This document shows, one piece after another, positions 768 through 12,444 of a DNA stretch of 64,000 bases; within the stretch, counting starts at the first letter, position 1, and each line of letters opens with the position of its first letter. Source of the stretch: Arthrobacter jiangjiafuii (lineage in GTDB: Bacteria > Actinomycetota > Actinomycetes > Actinomycetales > Micrococcaceae). The notes under the pieces are model-generated. The model ran no database searches. It worked only from the letters and a program-made list of their open reading frames with translations, and was not told where the DNA came from. The translations under genes were made by a program, and so were the position numbers. The stretch lies in assembly GCF_018622995.1 (NCBI RefSeq), contig NZ_CP076022.1, forward strand, positions 3,224,001-3,288,000. The letters are read 5' to 3'.

Positions 768-2374
768 TGGCCTGCCCCCTCTCCGAGGACTGCTTCAATG
801 TACGGGGTGCGGTCCACCAGGTCCTGCGCCGCGTTGTCGCTCAGCGAGAACAGCGGGCCGGCCAGGACGGTCAGCGAGACACCCAGGGCCACGAGCCCCA
901 CCGTTGGGTACACCATGGTGCGCGGCAGCAGGTCCACGGCGTCGCGGCCGGCGAACTTGCCGGTGGACTTTTCGTTGACGTCGCCGGAGTGGCGCAGCGA
1001 GGAACCGTCGGTGCCGGTCGCCAGCAGGATCGGATCCGGATGCACGGCGTCTTCCGGGGTCCGCCAGAAGGCGCGGTTCCAGACCCGGGCCATCACCAGC
1101 AGGGTCAGCAGGCTGGTCACCACGCTGGCTCCCACGAGGACGAAAGCCAGCGGTGTCCCGAGGTCCACGCCGGCCTCCATGAGCCCGAGTTTCCCGAGGA
1201 AGCCGGAGAACGGCGGGATGCCCGCGAGGTTGATCGCGGGGATGAAGTAGAGGACGCCAAGCAGCGGGGAGAGTTTGGCCAGCCCGCCCAAGCGGTCCAT
1301 GTTCGCGGTCCCGCCCCGCCGTTCAATCAGGCCGGTGACCAGGAACAGGGAAGTCTGGACCGTAATGTGGTGGACCACGTAGAACACCGCTGACCCGATG
1401 CCCACCACCGAGCCGACCGCCAGCCCGAAGACCATGTAGCCGATGTGGCTTACCAGGGTGAAGGAGAGCATTCGCTTGATGTCGGTCTGTGCCAGCGCAC
1501 CGAGGATGCCCACCAGCATGGTCAGCCCCGCCACCACCATCAGCAGGGTGTTGATCCGGTCGCCGGGGAAGAGCAGGGTTTCGGTGCGGACCATGGCGTA
1601 GACGCCAACCTTGGTCAGCAGGCCGGCGAACACCGCGGTGACCGGAGCCGGCGCCGTCGGGTAGGAGTCGGGGAGCCAGAAGGACAGTGGGAAAACGGCA
1701 GCCTTGATCCCGAAGGCCACCAGCAGCATCAGGTGCAGCATCAGCTGGGTGCCCTGGTCCAGGTCGGCCAGTTTCACGGCCAGGTCAGCCATGTTCACCG
1801 TGCCGGTGGCTGCGTAGATCATCGCAATGGTGATCAGGAACAGCAGCGAGGAGACCACGCTGACGACGACGTAGGTGACGCCGGCGCGGATGCGCGGGGT
1901 GGTTCCGCCGAGGGTCATCAGCACGTAGCTGGCCGTGAGCAGGATTTCGAACCCGACATAGAGGTTGAAGAGGTCCCCGGCGAGGAAGGCGTTGGACACT
2001 CCTGCCACCAGGATCAGGTAGGTCGGGTGGAAGATCGAGATCGGCCCGTCTTCGTCGCCGTCGGTCATGCCCTGCCCTGCGGCGTAGATGAGGACCGCCA
2101 GGCTCACGGCCGAGGAAACCACCAGCATCAGGGCCGAGAATTGGTCCACCACCATGGTGATGCCCACCGGCGGCAGCCAGCCGCCCAGGTTCACGGCCTG
2201 CGCGCCGGTCTCCCAGACGGCGAACAGCAGGAACACCTCGAGGATCAGCGTCACGGACAGGATGCTGATGCTGATGACACGCTGGGCGCGTGTGTGCCGG
2301 ATCAGGATGAAGGCCAGGGCGGCGCCGAAGAACGGCAGGACCACGGCCAGCGGGGCCAGACTTATGGTGTTCAT
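764..2374 (-). CDS. mrpD: Mrp antiporter subunit D (proton-conducting, NuoM/N-like)
   Basis: 536 residues and about 14 membrane helices, of the proton-conducting subunit family shared with complex I. Conserved charged residues in the membrane are visible: Glu143 in GFEILLTASY, Lys224 in FGIKAAVFPL and Lys255 in LLTKVG. In the family these form the proton path of the antiporter, which exports Na+ or other monovalent cations and supports pH and salt tolerance. Starts and stops overlap mrpC (upstream) and mrpE (downstream) by 4 bases each. A hydrophilic loop near residues 445-480 is longer than in many homologues. Confidence 0.95.
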   Translation of the reverse strand: MNTISLAPLAVVLPFFGAALAFILIRHTRAQRVISISILSVTLILEVFLLFAVWETGAQAVNLGGWLPPVGITMVVDQFSALMLVVSSAVSLAVLIYAAGQGMTDGDEDGPISIFHPTYLILVAGVSNAFLAGDLFNLYVGFEILLTASYVLMTLGGTTPRIRAGVTYVVVSVVSSLLFLITIAMIYAATGTVNMADLAVKLADLDQGTQLMLHLMLLVAFGIKAAVFPLSFWLPDSYPTAPAPVTAVFAGLLTKVGVYAMVRTETLLFPGDRINTLLMVVAGLTMLVGILGALAQTDIKRMLSFTLVSHIGYMVFGLAVGSVVGIGSAVFYVVHHITVQTSLFLVTGLIERRGGTANMDRLGGLAKLSPLLGVLYFIPAINLAGIPPFSGFLGKLGLMEAGVDLGTPLAFVLVGASVVTSLLTLLVMARVWNRAFWRTPEDAVHPDPILLATGTDGSSLRHSGDVNEKSTGKFAGRDAVDLLPRTMVYPTVGLVALGVSLTVLAGPLFSLSDNAAQDLVDRTPYIEAVLGEGAGQ

Positions 2375-2859
2375 TCCTTGGCCTCCGGGCTGGTGCTCTG
2401 ACCGGTGGCACGCAGGGAACCCGGCGCCTCTTCAGCCTCTTCGGGCGGTGTGAATTCGGTAGTGTCCTCGGGGACGTCGGCGTCGTCTTCCGCGTCGAAG
2501 CTGCTCTGGCTTGCCACGCGGCGGTCTTCGATATCGTCTTGGACCTCGTCCTGGCGGCTCAGCACCCAGGAGCGGTAGATGATGCCCAGCATGAACGCGG
2601 TCACCGAGAAGGAAATCACGATCGACGTCAGGATAAAGGCCTGCGGCAGCGGATCGTTGTAGTCCTCCGCCGCGATGCCCGGGTTGAACAGCGGAGCCAG
2701 GCCCTGGAAGCCGCCGGTGGAGAGCAGCAGGATGTTCGTGGCGTTGGTGAGCATGGTCAGTCCCAGCACCACGCGCGTCAGGCTGCGCTCGAGGAGCAGG
2801 TAGATGCCGCAGGCGTATAACGCGCCCATGATGACCATGAAGGTGATGTTGACGCTCAT
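2371..2859 (-). CDS. mrpC: Mrp antiporter subunit C (NuoK-like)
   Basis: 162 residues. The first roughly 110 residues form three hydrophobic helices with the NuoK/MnhC pattern (ACGIYLLLERSLTRVVLGLTM, then NATNILLL, then DPLPQAFILTSIVISF). The remainder is a very acidic hydrophilic tail (DAEDDADVPEDTTEF and similar) that is not part of the usual core of about 110-125 residues. Family role: membrane subunit of the Mrp Na+/H+ antiporter, packed between the A/B and D subunits. It overlaps mrpA/B by 4 bases and mrpD by 4 bases. Confidence 0.94.
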   Translation of the reverse strand: MSVNITFMVIMGALYACGIYLLLERSLTRVVLGLTMLTNATNILLLSTGGFQGLAPLFNPGIAAEDYNDPLPQAFILTSIVISFSVTAFMLGIIYRSWVLSRQDEVQDDIEDRRVASQSSFDAEDDADVPEDTTEFTPPEEAEEAPGSLRATGQSTSPEAKE

Positions 2860-5800
2860 CGGGACACCTCCTCCTCTTCTTCTTCTCGTTCTTCGGTGGC
2901 GGGGACTTCGGGTTCGGGTTCCACCAGCTCCGCCTCGGGAGCGGAGCCACCCTCGCTGCGTTCGTCGATTTCAGAGCCCAGGCTGCGCAGGACATCCAGG
3001 ACCAGCCCCACCACCACCAGGTACACGCCGATGTCGAAAATGGTGGAGGTGACGAACTTGATCTCGCCGAAGACAGGCCAGGTGAACTTGATGATGGCGC
3101 TTTGCAGGATCTGTCCGCCGAAGGCCAGCGGTGCAGCTGCTGACAGTCCGGCCAGGCCCAGCCCGCCGCCGAGCAGCAGGCCGGCGCTGACCGGGCTGGC
3201 CTCGGCCAGTTCGAAGCGGCCGCCGGCGAGATAGCGGATGGTCAGGGCGAGCCCTGCCATCAGCCCGCCGGCGAACCCGCCGCCGGGCAGGTTGTGCCCG
3301 GCCAGCAACAGGTAGATCGAGAACATGATCACCGAGTGGAACAGCAGGCGGGTGACCACCTCGAAGATGATGGAGCGCCGTTCCGGGGCCAGGGTGCGCC
3401 CGGCCACCAGCCACGCGTCTCGGCTGACGCTGGAGAACTTGCGGGCCATCGCCAGCGTGGCCTCCTGCCGGCCCGAGGCTGCGAAATACTCGCGCCCGCG
3501 GTCCACGGAGCCGGTGGCCACGTTCTCCGCGCGGCGCCGCTTGTCGCCGCGGCCGCGCACGAAGATCAGGGAGGCAACACCGGTGGCGGCCATGGCCAGC
3601 ACCGAGATCTCGCCGAAGGTGTCCCACGCCCGGATGTCGACGAGGGTGACGTTGACGATGTTGGCACCGCCGCCCACCTCGTAGGCCAGGTTCGGGAAAG
3701 CCAGCGAAATGGGTTCGGCAACGCGTGAGGCCATGGCCGTCATGGCGATGACCACCATGGCGGTACCGAAGCCGATCCCCAGCAGCGCCCGCAGCAGGCG
3801 GTGCCCGGAGGGTTCCCGCTTCCACAGCCGGGCCGGCAGCGACCGCAGGGCAAGCACAAACGCGACCAGCACAATGGTTTCCACCAGCATCTGGGTCAGC
3901 GCCAGGTCCGGGGCTCCCTGCAGGGCGAAGATCAGGGCAATACCGTAGCCGGTCACGCTGACCATCAGCACGGCCAGGAAGCGCTTGTTGGCCCGGGCCG
4001 CGGCCACGGCGCCGAGGATGATGCCAACCCCGATGACTGCCTGCAGCGGCGAGTCGAACCAGTGGAACTGCTCGGGCAGGGGCGCGCCGACCACGACCAG
4101 GGCGGTCAGCGGGGTTATCACCGCCACCGTCAGGATGACGAACAGGTAGAACATCAGCGAACCGCGCTGCGTGCGCCCGGTGACCCAAACGGCGACGTCG
4201 TCGAGCACGCCCACAATGCCGCGGTAGGAACGTTCGGCGTCCAGCGGAGCGGTGAAACGTGCCTGCAGGCGTTCCACCCGCACCCGCTGCCAGAACAGCG
4301 CCAGCCCGGCGGCGATGGTGATAGCCGTGAGCAGCAGCGCGGTGGTGAAGCCGTGCCACAGCGCCAGGTGGGTGGGCTCGCCGTCGGCCGGGAACAGGCC
4401 CGCATAGGAGACGATCGCCGCATCCAGCGGCGCCGGCCAGAGGCCGAAGAGCACAGTGGCCACAGCAAGGATGGCCGGGGCGGTGAGGAAGGCCGCCGGA
4501 ACCGGCTTGAAGGCGGTGGGCTCGCTGCCGGTCTTGCCCGCGAAGCCGCCCCAGACAAACCGGGCACTGTAGGCCAGGGTGAGGATGGAGCCGATGACGA
4601 CGCCGGCCAGCAGGACCGCTGCGGCAACCGTGCCCTCGTGCTCGGCGTAGTGGACGAACGTCTCGTAGACCGATTCCTTCGCCACGAAGCCCAGCAGCGG
4701 CGGGATCCCGGCCATCGAGGCGGCGCCGATCACGGCCACGGCGCAGAGCAGCGGGGCCCGGCGGTAGATGCCGGAGAGCTTGCGCAGGTCGCGGGTGCCG
4801 GACTGGTGGTCGATGATGCCGACCACCAGGAACAGTGTGGCCTTGAAGAAGCCGTGGGCCAGCAGCAGGCCAAGCCCGGCCACTGCCGCTTCCCGGTTGC
4901 CCAGTCCCACGACCAGGGTCAGGAAGCCGAGCTGGCTCACCGTGCCGTAGGCCAGGATCAGCTTCAGGTCGTACTGGCGCAGGGCCCGCCAGCCGCCCAG
5001 CAGCATGGTGGACAGGCCCAGGACCAGCACGACGGCGTGCCAGTAGGTGGAGTCGGAGAAGCCGGGGGCCAGCCGGGCGATGAGATAGATGCCGGCTTTG
5101 ACCATGGCTGCGGCATGCAGGTACGCGCTGACCGGTGTGGGTGCGGCCATGGCTGCCGGCAGCCAGAAGTGGAACGGCAGCAGCGCTGACTTGGAAACCG
5201 CGCCGAGCAGCATCAGCACAACCGCGACATCGACCATCGTGCCGCGGGAGACCAGGTCCGGCGCCATCGCCAGGATGGCGGAAATGCGGAATGTCCCCGC
5301 TGCCTCCCCCAGCATGATCATTCCCACCAGCATCGCCAGCCCGCCGAAGGTGGTGACGATGAGCGCCTGCAGGGCGGCGCGGCGGGCCGAGAGCCGGTGC
5401 GCCGAATAACCGATCAGCAGGTAGGACAGGATGGTGGTCAGTTCCCAGAAGATGAACAGCAGGATCAGGTCATCTGCGGTCACCAGCCCGAACATCGCCG
5501 CGGCAAAGGCCAGCAGCTGGGAGCCGAAGGCGCCCATCTGGGCATCGCCGGGACGGAAATAGCGGGCGCAATAGAAGAGGACCAGCGAGCCGACGCCAAG
5601 GATCAGGATCGACAGGACCGCGGCCAGCGTGTCCATCCGGAACGCGAGCTCCACCTGGAGGTCGGGGATCCAGGGGATAATGACCGACGGCGGGGCGTTG
5701 GGAGCGCCCGAGGCCAGTGTCTGGTCGGCGCCGGTGTAGCGGTCGAACGTGAGCAGCAGCCAGATGAAGGCCGCGGCGGGAACGGCGGCAAGGATGTAGA

Positions 5801-9692: not shown

Positions 9693-9853
9693 CCTCCTCA
9701 GGATCTTCGCGGGATCCGGCCTTGCACTGCTCGCTGTATTGCGCTGCTCCCGGTATTGCACTGTCGGCGGGGACCTCTAGGCTGGGGCAACAGCTGCAGC
9801 CGGGGAGTGTCACCGCAGGCCCCGGTCCGGTACCTGCGACCCTGGAGGACCCC

Positions 9854-10897
9854 ATGATCTGCACCATTGTTCCCCCTTACCTGCTGGCCCGCATCGCCGG
9901 TCTCCAGGACGAAGGTTTCAGCCGGGCGGCGGAAGCCGCGCGGCACGCACTGGCGGAGCTTGACCCCGTGGCGCAGGCCCGGTCGCAGGCCCGGCAGTCC
10001 CCGCCGCCGCGGCCCGGCACCGCCGTCGTTCCCTCCCTGCGCCGCGAGGTTTCCGACGCGGGCAGCAGGGAGACGCTGCCCGGAACGGTGGCCCGCGTCG
10101 AGGGTGCGGCAGCGACCGGGGACGCGGCAGTGGATGAAGCGTACGACGGCCTCGGCGCCACCGGTGCCCTGTTCCGGGACGCCTACGGCCGGGTAGCGGT
10201 GGACGGCGCCGGCGGGCTGCTCGCCGCCACCGTCCACTACGGACGTGAGTACGACAATGCGTTCTGGAACGGCGAGCGGATGGTCTGCGGTGACGGTGAC
10301 GGCGAGATCTTCGAACGGTTCACCAAGTCGGTGACGGTGATCGGGCACGAGTTGGCCCACGGCGTCGTCCAATACACCGCTGCCCTGGAGTACCAGGGGC
10401 AGGCCGGGGCGCTGAACGAATCCGTATCCGACGTCTTCGGCGTGCTGGTTGAACAGAAGCTCCTGCGGCAGGAAGCGGCCCGGGCCAGCTGGCTGGTGGG
10501 CGCCGGGCTGTTCACTGACCAGGTCTCGGGCAGTGCGCTGCGTTCCCTGAAGGCTCCGGGCACGGCGTACGACGACGACGTGCTGGGCCGTGATCCGCAG
10601 CCTGCCACCATGGCCGGCTACGTCTCCACCCAGGCAGACAACGGCGGAGTCCACATCAACTCCGGGATTCCCAACCATGCCTTCTATTTGGCCGCCACGA
10701 CCCTCGGTGGCTTCGCCTGGGAGCGGGCCGGGCAGATCTGGTACGACACCATCACCGAACAAAGCCTGCCGGTGGACTGCACCTTCGCCGGTTTCGCTGC
10801 CGCAACACTGGCCGCTGCGGACAAGCGGTACGGAACCGCTTCGCCGGAGTACAGCGCTGTCACCGATGCCTGGGGCGCCGTGGGAATCCGGCCGTGA
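9854..10897 (+). CDS. Protealysin-like M4 metalloprotease
   Basis: 347 residues from the ATG at 9854 (GGAGG five bases upstream). There is no signal peptide; the N-terminus MICTIVPPYLLARIAG has the PPxLL-type motif of the short protealysin propeptide. Zinc ligands and catalytic residues of family M4 are visible: HELAH at 165-169, Glu189 in NESVSD, and the GGVHINSG segment with the transition-state His. Protealysin-type enzymes are cytoplasmic or non-classically exported zinc endopeptidases kept inactive by the propeptide. The stop overlaps the next gene, the emfourin-type inhibitor, in a GTGA sequence, so the pair is translationally coupled. Confidence 0.9.
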   Translation: MICTIVPPYLLARIAGLQDEGFSRAAEAARHALAELDPVAQARSQARQSPPPRPGTAVVPSLRREVSDAGSRETLPGTVARVEGAAATGDAAVDEAYDGLGATGALFRDAYGRVAVDGAGGLLAATVHYGREYDNAFWNGERMVCGDGDGEIFERFTKSVTVIGHELAHGVVQYTAALEYQGQAGALNESVSDVFGVLVEQKLLRQEAARASWLVGAGLFTDQVSGSALRSLKAPGTAYDDDVLGRDPQPATMAGYVSTQADNGGVHINSGIPNHAFYLAATTLGGFAWERAGQIWYDTITEQSLPVDCTFAGFAAATLAAADKRYGTASPEYSAVTDAWGAVGIRP

Positions 10898-11154
10898 AGA
10901 TCGTGGTGGTGCGCACCGGCGGATTTGCCGGGCTGACCCGGGTCTGGAGCGCCCAGGTCAGTACGGAGGAGGCGGAGCAGGAGTGGCTGCCGCTGCTGCA
11001 GGATCCGCCGCAGGAACAGCCCGGCGGACCGGACCGGTTCGTTTATGAAATCATGGTGGGCCCTGCCACGGTCACGCTGCCCGAGCACTGCCTGCAGGGG
11101 AGGTGGCTGGACCTGGTTCAACGCGTGCGGCAGGGCGGGACTGACGGATCGTGA
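10894..11154 (+). CDS. Emfourin-type protealysin inhibitor
   Basis: 86 residues, GTG start overlapping the protease stop by four bases. The sequence MKIVVVRTGGFAGLTR, then a Trp/Asp/Pro-rich middle and FVYEIMVGPATVTLPE, matches the emfourin family, small slow tight-binding inhibitors of protealysin-like M4 peptidases. In Serratia the inhibitor gene also directly follows the protease gene. The likely role is to protect the cytoplasm from the neighbouring protease. The call rests on the sequence pattern plus the strict pairing; inhibition is not shown by sequence alone. Confidence 0.85.
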   Translation: MKIVVVRTGGFAGLTRVWSAQVSTEEAEQEWLPLLQDPPQEQPGGPDRFVYEIMVGPATVTLPEHCLQGRWLDLVQRVRQGGTDGS

Positions 11155-11220
11155 CAGGCGAATTCGGGAGCGGGCCGGTTCCATGTAAAGTGGTTTTCTG
11201 TGCCGGTTCGCTCCGGCGCT

Positions 11221-11294
11221 GCGGGCGTAGCTCAATGGTAGAGCGCTAGCTTCCCAAGCTTGATACGCGGGTTCGATTCCCGTCGCCCGCTCCA
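11221..11294 (+). tRNA. tRNA-Gly, anticodon CCC
   Basis: 74 nt with encoded CCA. Acceptor stem GCGGGCG/CGCCCGC, D arm GCTC...GAGC, anticodon loop TTCCCAA (anticodon CCC, reads GGG), and T loop GGGTTCGATTCCC. The anticodon stem CTAGC/GCTTG contains one T-T mismatch at the second pair. It is followed after three bases by a strong terminator. Confidence 0.97.
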
Positions 11295-11297
11295 CGC

Positions 11298-11333
11298 AAA
11301 ACCCCCGGAAACCAGTGGTTTCCGGGGGTTTTT
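11298..11333 (+). terminator. Rho-independent terminator of tRNA-Gly
   Basis: Perfect 16-bp inverted repeat (AAAACCCCCGGAAACC, loop AGT, GGTTTCCGGGGGTTTT) ending in a run of five T. It starts three bases after the tRNA CCA. With A-runs on the left arm it could act in both directions. Confidence 0.92.
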
Positions 11334-11383
11334 CCGTGGCGGACGTTCCGCCGGCCGGCGCGGATTCCTCCCCGTCCCGCACG

Positions 11384-11389
11384 TATACT
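11384..11389 (+). promoter_or_regulatory. -10 element (TATACT), possible leaderless promoter
   Basis: TATACT lies eight bases before the ATG at 11398. A start site at the usual distance would fall on or next to that ATG, giving a leaderless transcript, a common arrangement in actinobacteria. No good -35 is seen. Inference from spacing. Confidence 0.5.
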
Positions 11390-11397
11390 GGGCCCCG

Positions 11398-11511
11398 ATG
11401 AGCCCACTACACTGCAGCACCACAAGACACTGGCGCACCACACGACACTGTTGCACCACACTGCCCGCACCCGGGGTCCGCCGGGCCTTGTCCGCCACCG
11501 ACGTGGCGTAG
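11398..11511 (+). CDS. Possible leaderless leader peptide upstream of the AEC carrier
   Basis: 37-codon open frame, MSPLHCSTTRHWRTTRHCCT onward, ending in TAG at 11509-11511. Its ATG sits directly downstream of a TATACT -10. Residues 5-22 consist of three imperfect six-residue units (HCSTTR, HWRTTR, HCCTTL) encoded by an 18-bp tandem repeat. It is in the same frame as the AEC gene, whose GTG start follows the stop after six bases and lacks a recognisable ribosome site, so reinitiation could couple the two. It could instead be a disabled N-terminal extension or chance. No homologue is recognised. Confidence 0.4.
   Translation: MSPLHCSTTRHWRTTRHCCTTLPAPGVRRALSATDVA
11410..11463 (+). repeat. 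18-bp tandem repeat, three copies
   Basis: Three adjacent 18-base units starting at 11410, 11428 and 11446, consensus CACTGnnGCACCACAnGA. The third unit diverges in its last bases. The period is a multiple of three and falls inside the small frame 11398-11511. Confidence 0.85.
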
Positions 11512-11517
11512 CGTCCG

Positions 11518-12444
11518 GTGCTGGGGGTACTCACCGGGTTCACGGTTGTCTGGATCATCATCCTGGCCGGCTACCTGATCGGGCGTCTGGGGGTCCTGGG
11601 CGACAACGCCCAAACGGTCCTCAGCCGGCTCGCCTTTTTTGTCGCGTCGCCGGCCCTGCTGCTGGTCACCCTGAGCGATGCCGACCTGGGCACCGTCTTC
11701 TCCCTGCCGTTGCTGGTGGCAGCGGCCAGCGCGCTGCTGACGGCCGTGGTCTTCGTGCTGTGCACCCGCTGGTGGTTGCGCCGCCCGCTGCCCGAGGCGC
11801 TGATCTCCGCCATGTCCTCGTCCCTGGTCAACGCCGCCAACCTCGGCCTGCCAATTGCCGTCTACGTGCTGGGCGACGCCGCCTACATTGCCCCGGTGCT
11901 GATCTTCCAGCTGGCCTTTTTCACCCCGCTGTTCCTGATGGCGCTGGATACCTCCACCAGCGGACGGCGCACGTCCCTGTTGTCCTTCCTGGCCCAGACC
12001 GTCCGCAATCCCATCATCATCGGGACCCTGATCGGCCTGTTCCTAGGCGCCACCGGCCTGGAGCTGCCCGTCATCATCCTGGAACCGGTGACGCTGATCG
12101 GCGGTGCCGCGGTTCCGGCCATGCTGCTGGCGTTCGGCATTTCCCTCGTCGGTTCCCGTCCGCTGCGCCGCGACGGCGGCAGGCGCGCCGACGTCGTGCT
12201 CGCCTCTGCCTTCAAGCTGGTGCTGCAACCGGCCCTGGCGTACCTGCTGGCCCGGTTTGTCCTGGGGATGGAGGGGCACCTGTTGTTCGCCGTCGTCGTG
12301 ACCGCGGCCCTGCCCACGGCCCAGAATGTCTTCGTGGCCGCCACCCGCTACGAGGAAGGGGTGCTCGTGGCCAAAGACACCGTCCTGGTGACAACGGTCC
12401 TCTCGCTCCCGGTCCTGGTACTCATCGCTGCCCTGCTGGCCTGA
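11518..12444 (+). CDS. AEC family transporter (auxin efflux carrier-like)
   Basis: 308 residues, about ten hydrophobic helices in two five-helix halves. The pattern WIIILAGYLIGRLGVL, then LSRLAFFVASPALLL near the N-terminus, NAANLGLPIAVYVLG in the middle, and AALPTAQNVFVAATRY near the C-terminus is typical of bacterial AEC carriers. Members export or exchange organic anions such as malate or malonate; the substrate here is not assigned. The GTG at 11518 is the first plausible start after an in-frame TAG; no Shine-Dalgarno is evident, so initiation may depend on the short upstream frame. Confidence 0.88.
   Translation: MLGVLTGFTVVWIIILAGYLIGRLGVLGDNAQTVLSRLAFFVASPALLLVTLSDADLGTVFSLPLLVAAASALLTAVVFVLCTRWWLRRPLPEALISAMSSSLVNAANLGLPIAVYVLGDAAYIAPVLIFQLAFFTPLFLMALDTSTSGRRTSLLSFLAQTVRNPIIIGTLIGLFLGATGLELPVIILEPVTLIGGAAVPAMLLAFGISLVGSRPLRRDGGRRADVVLASAFKLVLQPALAYLLARFVLGMEGHLLFAVVVTAALPTAQNVFVAATRYEEGVLVAKDTVLVTTVLSLPVLVLIAALLA

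What the first reader, a model, noticed from the sequence alone, without database searches (positions are those of the whole stretch)
11384..11520. Possible leaderless leader peptide with an HxxTTR repeat ahead of an AEC transporter
TATACT eight bases before an ATG implies a leaderless mRNA. The 37-codon frame has three 18-bp repeats rich in Cys, His, Arg and Thr codons, ends six bases before the transporter's GTG, and that GTG lacks a ribosome site. Translation of the peptide could thus control the transporter, like attenuator or uORF leaders (for example Cys-rich leaders in mycobacteria).
Basis: partly seen in the sequence, partly recalled or inferred. Interest (0 to 1): 0.55.

Follow-up and report, generated by a model that had tools for sequence, protein, structure and literature searches.

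The report
Gene stump feeding ribosomes to transporter
A tiny reading frame ahead of a transporter gene looks like the worn-down stump of a lost vitamin-pathway gene (panD), apparently kept not for its peptide but because ribosomes that start on it are handed on to the transporter, which seems to have no ribosome-binding site of its own.

Summary
In detail: TATACT (11384-11389), ATG eight bases later, a 37-codon frame (11398-11511) with three in-frame 18-bp repeats, TAG six bases before the AEC transporter's GTG (11518), no clear Shine-Dalgarno site. The leaderless-type mini-ORF recurs in relatives; the repeats and the Cys/His/Arg/Thr codons do not, so an amino-acid attenuator is not supported.

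In sister Arthrobacter genomes panD, itself with a leaderless-type promoter, sits at this spot and runs straight into AEC. Eight of 29 genus genomes lack panD: exactly the eight with the mini-ORF (six) or with AEC itself at the leaderless position (two). Place, promoter, start register, stop and frame fit panD, so the mini-ORF is best read as an in-frame panD stump. The repeats are a local expansion (+36 nt = 2 x 18).

Across 93 AEC loci, 73 have a mini-ORF stopping at the AEC start (frame-shifted controls: 10 of 148). Interiors drift without peptide selection, while rare NTA codons keep an overlapping stop. Best reading: the mini-ORF delivers ribosomes by termination-reinitiation. No transcript or translation data were available.

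The parts
11221..11294 (+). tRNA-Gly (CCC), the syntenic anchor upstream of panD or of the mini-ORF in the genus
11298..11332 (+). perfect 17-bp inverted repeat followed by T's: probable terminator behind the tRNA gene
   Evidence: I1; the scanner demands a loop of 3 or more and did not list it
11384..11389 (+). TATACT, probable -10 element, at the place of the TAGACT/TACACT -10 of panD in sister genomes
11398..11511 (+). 37-codon leaderless-type mini-ORF (ATG to TAG), read as an in-frame stump of panD
11410..11463 (+). three 18-bp in-frame tandem repeats, absent from the five other stumps (36 nt longer than the 84-nt relatives = 2 x 18)
11470..11499 (+). codons for PGVRRALSAT, aligning by eye with the P[PS]E[IV]RR[IV]S core of L002-L005, which in L002 matches panD MFKSKIHR
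   Evidence: alignment of L001 to the core made by eye
11509..11520 (+). stop-to-start junction TAGCGTCCGGTG, close to the panD-AEC junction TAGCCGCATCCGGTG of L007
   Evidence: compared by eye
11518..12444 (+). AEC-family transporter (Mem_trans, PF03547), GTG start without a clear SD

Best explanation
The mini-ORF is the in-frame remnant of a leaderless panD gene that once stood between the tRNA-Gly gene and the AEC transporter gene and was translationally coupled to it. After panD was lost, its promoter, start codon, stop codon and frame stayed. Ribosomes load at the leaderless ATG, cross 15 to 37 irrelevant codons, terminate at TAG six bases before the transporter's GTG and reinitiate there, so the stump feeds ribosomes to a start that has no clear Shine-Dalgarno site. 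Shown by sequence: architecture, recurrence in relatives, absence of panD, lack of peptide constraint, synteny. Inferred: leaderless transcription, translation of the stump, reinitiation, and that panD was the ancestor. The 18-bp repeats are taken as a neutral or slightly useful in-frame expansion.
For: Six of eight panD-less genomes have the leaderless-type mini-ORF with TAG 6 nt before GTG; the other two have none, and TATACT stands 6 nt before the AEC GTG itself. PF02261 is absent from exactly those 8 of 29 genomes; 13 have panD directly before AEC, 8 have panD but no AEC match at E 1e-100. tRNA-Gly precedes AEC in 8 of 8 panD-less loci and panD-AEC in 7 of 7 genus loci scanned, of 13. panD in sisters has TAGACT-8 nt-ATG or a close variant (16 loci seen). 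A panD 5' profile from 16 loci, run on the 8 panD-less loci, has its best hit in exact start-codon register in 4 of 6 stumps (L002 E 4e-5, L009 1.8e-3, L004 0.011, L001 0.78). L009 matches panD at 13 of its first 15 bases, 0 of 1555 window ATGs as good. Wider: 73 of 93 AEC loci carry a mini-ORF stopping within -6..+7 of the AEC start; for the 74 rows with such a start, reading from 1 or 2 bases later puts a stop there in only 10 of 148. Among 54 B/P loci with Leu or Val at AEC codon 2, 46 use NTA codons (39 CTA, 2 TTA, 5 GTA), whose TAG ends the mini-ORF, against 0.8% NTA of Leu and 6.5% GTA of Val later in the genes; in A, leaderless and panD-direct loci 0 of 24 Leu codons. Interior changes fall evenly on codon positions, 91/92/80 of 370 each.
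Against: No transcript ends, ribosome footprints or reporter data. The panD similarity of the window's own stump is not significant alone (E 0.78; 8 of 15 bases, reached by 484 of 1555 ATGs), and L003 and L005 have their best profile hit elsewhere; the window is tied to panD by position, promoter, junction and relatives. Peptide shuffles support only L002 (61 of 5000 as good; the other five 1634 to 4364). The free AEC tree does not put the 8 panD-less rows in one clade, though one clade is not rejected (p-AU 0.36). No -35 element was found. One B locus, L086, has a broken frame. The constancy of start and stop columns (1 of 30 variable against 137 of 212 interior; 59 of the 73 mini-ORFs) is in part by construction, since rows were chosen and grouped by having a start and stop there. 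Rows are related, so no count is a set of independent events. Reinitiation cannot be told from unfolding by the ribosome.
Confidence: 0.7

Rival explanations
1. Amino-acid attenuator: the Cys/His/Arg/Thr-rich leader peptide senses charged tRNA and controls transporter transcription or translation.
For: Codon-rich repeats in the window: 3 Cys, 3 His, 5 Arg, 7 Thr of 37; leaderless Cys-rich uORFs are proposed in mycobacteria (Shell 2015, passages).
Against: Repeat absent and Cys codons 0, 0, 0, 0 and 1 in the five relatives that have the mini-ORF; no codon-level selection; no terminator found in 11150-11750; no Rfam leader; folding no better than shuffles, z 0.25 to 0.90 in five folds.
Confidence: 0.04
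2. Rho-type attenuation: the C-rich, G-poor stump is a Rho loading site that a translating ribosome covers.
For: 11398-11472 is 44% C and 17% G; composition, not codons, would be kept.
Against: Mini-ORFs of other loci are as short as 11 codons, and what recurs is start, stop and frame; panD itself takes this place in sisters.
Confidence: 0.08
3. The mini-ORF is a decaying relic with no function; AEC is translated independently from its GTG.
For: Its interior drifts freely and two genomes lack it.
Against: Start, stop and frame are still there in six stumps, at 0.31 mean pairwise interior divergence in the four of equal length; the two genomes without it have AEC itself at the leaderless position; 67 further loci show the same rule with other mini-ORFs.
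Confidence: 0.14
4. Regulation by an N-terminal extension: the stump is in frame with AEC and TAG is read through.
For: In-frame relation in all six stumps.
Against: TAG present in all six, with varied following bases; AEC begins at the same GTG in the leaderless-AEC genomes; most B and P mini-ORFs are out of frame with AEC (offsets).
Confidence: 0.02

Closest known systems
Coupled leaderless small ORFs of mycobacteria (Shell et al. 2015, PMC4633059; passages seen)
   Same: Leaderless RTG small ORF ending at the start of the next gene; linkage kept while the peptide is not; ribosome delivery proposed.
   Different: Window stop is 6 nt upstream, not an RTGA overlap (RTGA occurs in 14 of 93 loci here); origin traced to a lost gene; compared over 93 loci, where the passages seen show one M. 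tuberculosis/M. smegmatis example.
uPPE2-PPE2 termination-reinitiation in M. tuberculosis (Kipkorir et al. 2024, PMC11260477; abstract, outline and section 22 seen)
   Same: uORF as a 'landing pad' whose translation the downstream gene needs.
   Different: There under a B12 riboswitch with an AUGA overlap; here no Rfam riboswitch and a leaderless-type start.
Cysteine-rich leaderless uORFs of mycobacteria (Shell 2015, passages; later work recalled only)
   Same: Leaderless small ORF upstream of other genes.
   Different: There the Cys-rich peptide is conserved; here neither codons nor repeats are.
MIRU elements coupling an ORF to the gene at their insertion site (J Bacteriol 2025 review, PMC12548453; passages seen)
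   Same: An ORF that came from elsewhere may keep a downstream gene translated.
   Different: MIRUs appear mobile; this is a single-copy sequence read as the remnant of the neighbouring gene.

Membership tests
Leaderless coupled small ORF (Shell 2015 type) | Transcript begins at the RTG start codon | tested here: inconclusive
   -10 at 7-8 nt in 6 of 6 stumps; start of transcription not mapped
Leaderless coupled small ORF (Shell 2015 type) | Stop at or near the next start | tested here: met
   6 nt upstream in 6 of 6 stumps; -6..+7 in 73 of 93 loci; frame-shifted controls 10 of 148
Leaderless coupled small ORF (Shell 2015 type) | Strict RTGA overlap of stop and start (their 'coupled' class) | tested here: not met
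   window has TAG six bases upstream, which they would call a uORF; RTGA in 14 of 93 loci
Leaderless coupled small ORF (Shell 2015 type) | Linkage kept, peptide not | tested here: met
Leaderless coupled small ORF (Shell 2015 type) | Small ORF is translated | not testable with these tools
   no footprint data
Amino-acid attenuator / Cys-rich leader peptide | Conserved run of the sensed codon | tested here: not met
   no Cys in 4 of 5 relatives, one in the fifth
Amino-acid attenuator / Cys-rich leader peptide | Terminator/antiterminator or known leader RNA | tested here: not met
panD remnant | Same place, promoter type and start register as panD | tested here: met
panD remnant | Sequence similarity to panD in the stump | tested here: inconclusive
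   significant for L002 and L009, borderline L004, not for L001 (window), L003, L005
panD remnant | Full panD absent from the genome | tested here: met
   0 PF02261 matches in the 8 genomes, 1 in each of the other 21

The most novel reading that the evidence does not exclude
More widely, in Arthrobacter and its relatives the AEC gene keeps switching between SD-led, gene-coupled, leaderless and mini-ORF-fed starts, with the mini-ORF under selection for start, stop and frame but not for peptide.
Probability: 0.6. Interest if true: 0.66.

Novelty: new variant of a known kind. Interest (0 to 1): 0.56.

Why it matters
A review suggests that some short ORFs may exist only to deliver ribosomes (PMC12548453, passage). 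Here is a natural series with intact gene, in-frame stump and clean removal, plus 67 further loci where a mini-ORF ends at the same gene's start while its peptide drifts. It offers a source for leader ORFs (dead genes) and makes ribosome delivery testable in soil bacteria. It also warns that codon-rich repeats in a leader need not mean amino-acid sensing.

Tried and rejected
Amino-acid attenuator: rejected for want of conserved codons, terminator or leader RNA. RNA structure around the start: folds no better than shuffles; a possible CCGGUG/CACCGG hairpin over the GTG and a GAGATCC/GGATCTC palindrome in the stumps were seen by eye and not tested apart. Repeats as a genome-wide element: one full copy. 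SD energies: the 'leaderless AEC' class scored -5.7 in both rows and P-class AEC -5 or below in 42% of 31, so lack of SD is clear for classes A and panD-direct (0 of 6 and 0 of 17 at -5 or below), mostly true for B (14% of 37 at -5 or below) and not general for P. Peptide similarity to panD failed for five of six stumps. Literature searches; no title or abstract start that they listed names this locus. Absence from print beyond those searches, in a library without most subscription journals, is not claimed.

L039-L110 are the 80 loci kept of 405 relatives, less those eight, so they are the nearest relatives. Classes were first assigned by pattern; L047, L107, L055 and L091 were added and L067, L071, L074 and L106 moved from P to B by hand. 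Because classes are set by start and stop, the start/stop column test and the 41 of 41 NTA figure inside the +7 class are partly circular; the figures less open to this are 46 of 54 and the frame-shift control. The tally of 12 changes of start-to-AEC distance (11 keep the frame, L086 does not; binomial p 4.7e-5) was made by eye on the tree and shares this bias. The family and order survey was read by eye for 40 fetched stretches and 27 loci, with no count claimed.

Full report
THE OBSERVATION. The sequence is as described: TATACT 11384-11389, ATG 11398, 37 codons, TAG 11509-11511, six bases, GTG 11518. The three 18-bp repeats are real, with one full copy of the array in the genome. Upstream is a tRNA-Gly gene with an inverted repeat that is probably its terminator. 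The downstream protein is AEC-type (PF03547, E 5e-26; best NCBIfam model TIGR00946 below its cut-off). No sigma-70-type promoter and no terminator was found by pattern scan near the frame.

RELATIVES IN THE GENUS. Of 29 genus genomes, 21 have the AEC orthologue at E 1e-100 or better. Eight AEC copies lie just behind tRNA-Gly. Six of these (L001 = window, L002, L003, L004, L005, L009) have TATACT or TAGACT, 7-8 bases, ATG, a short frame, TAG and six bases before GTG. Two (L006, L011) have no short frame, and TATACT stands six bases before the AEC GTG. In the other 13, panD stands directly before AEC, with its stop 9 nt upstream in 12 and 11 nt in L018 (read).

A STUMP OF panD. tRNA-Gly precedes panD-AEC in 7 of 7 genus loci scanned (of 13) and AEC alone in 8 of 8 panD-less loci. 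panD there has a leaderless-type promoter, TAGACT-8 nt-ATG or a variant (16 loci seen). Aspartate decarboxylase (PF02261) is found in 21 of 29 genus genomes; the 8 without it are exactly the 8 above. A DNA profile of the panD start (16 loci) run on the 8 panD-less loci has its best hit in exact start-codon register in 4 of 6 stumps: L002 E 4e-5, L009 1.8e-3, L004 0.011, L001 0.78; for L003 and L005 the best hit lies in the AEC gene at E 0.68 and 0.44. L009 shares 13 of the first 15 bases with panD (0 of 1555 ATGs in the window do as well), L004 and L005 11 (15 of 1555), L002 10 (58), L003 9 (206), L001 8 (484). L002 keeps MFPSEIRR against panD MFKSKIHR (61 of 5000 shuffles as good; no support for the other five). 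The junction TAGCGTCCGGTG of the window differs from TAGCCGCATCCGGTG of L007 by three bases removed and one changed (by eye). Stump and, in those 12 genomes, panD are both in frame with AEC. One loss of panD is not rejected by the AEC tree (p-AU 0.36), although the free tree does not show it. Start-to-AEC distances are 84, 84, 84, 84, 120 and 54; the window's 36 extra bases equal two repeat units, and L009 has a 15-nt duplication of its own (by eye).

THE WIDER RULE. In 93 AEC loci (21 from the genus, 72 after dropping 8 duplicates) the classes are A 6, leaderless AEC 2, panD-direct 17, B 37 (own -10, leaderless-type GTG mini-ORF) and P 31 (mini-ORF between panD and AEC). In B, 35 of 37 have TAnnnT 6-7 nt before GTG. 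The mini-ORF stops within -6..+7 of the AEC start in 73 of 93; of the 74 rows with such a start only L086 (Hiyo8) fails. Reading the same rows one or two bases later puts a stop there in 10 of 148 (8 of the 10 are P rows at one shift). Of 54 B/P loci with Leu or Val at AEC codon 2, 46 use NTA (39 CTA, 2 TTA, 5 GTA), which makes the overlapping TAG; later in the genes NTA is 37 of 4627 Leu and GTA 206 of 3149 Val, and the A, leaderless and panD-direct loci have 0 of 24 Leu. In 29 nearest pairs interior changes fall 91, 92 and 80 on codon positions 1, 2 and 3 (370 sites each), synonymous fraction 0.266 against 0.292 expected; AEC itself, in those of the pairs with equal gene length, shows 512, 231 and 2372 of 8235. 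So the frame is kept and the peptide is not. Start and stop columns vary in 1 of 30, interior columns in 137 of 212 (59 of 73 mini-ORFs), but that contrast is partly built in by how the rows were chosen. Similar mini-ORFs were read by eye in other genera of the family (L147-L150, L152, L165, L166, L171; the stop of L150 lies 17 bases into AEC) and in another family (L020, L135), while other genera have an SD-like stretch behind the same tRNA-Gly (for example L160, L162).

MECHANISM. Best reading: leaderless loading on the stump, then termination-reinitiation six bases on. That the ribosome only melts structure is not excluded, though folds are ordinary. Precedents are the coupled leaderless small ORFs of mycobacteria (PMC4633059, passages), the uPPE2 landing pad (PMC11260477, abstract, outline and section 22) and the 'deliver a ribosome' proposal in review (PMC12548453, passages). 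An amino-acid sensor is not supported.

NOVELTY. Ribosome-delivery ORFs are known in outline; the proposed origin from a dead gene, the graded series and the neutral-peptide test are what is added here. Searches for prior reports were.

Noticed in passing
G000 and 7 other genus genomes: panD is missing in 8 of 29 genomes while panC (PF02569) is present in 29 of 29: the source of beta-alanine for pantothenate is unknown there.
   Followed up: partly
G005, G006, G017, G018, G022, G023, G024, G040: The mirror case: panD kept, no AEC match at E 1e-100.
   Followed up: no
L041-L044, L046, L048, L049, L058, L066, L069, L073, L075, L078, L088, upstream of the mini-ORF: AAAACGCTTAC stretch shortly before the -10 in these Paenarthrobacter-type loci (by eye), resembling a LacI-family operator half (recalled).
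   Followed up: no
P-class loci such as L039, between panD stop and mini-ORF GTG: A nearly invariant CCGGAGC before the GTG with CCGG shortly after, able to form a hairpin around the mini-ORF start (by eye).
   Followed up: no
L150 (G348), mini-ORF: Another in-frame tandem repeat in such a mini-ORF (12 nt x 3, by eye).
   Followed up: no
window 9848-10897 and 10894-11154, + strand: Thermolysin-type M4 metallopeptidase gene followed by an Emfourin-domain ORF, a protease and perhaps its inhibitor (the inhibitor role is recalled).
   Followed up: no
L086 (Arthrobacter sp. Hiyo8): The one B-class locus with a one-base shift that breaks the mini-ORF frame; true exception or assembly error.
   Followed up: no
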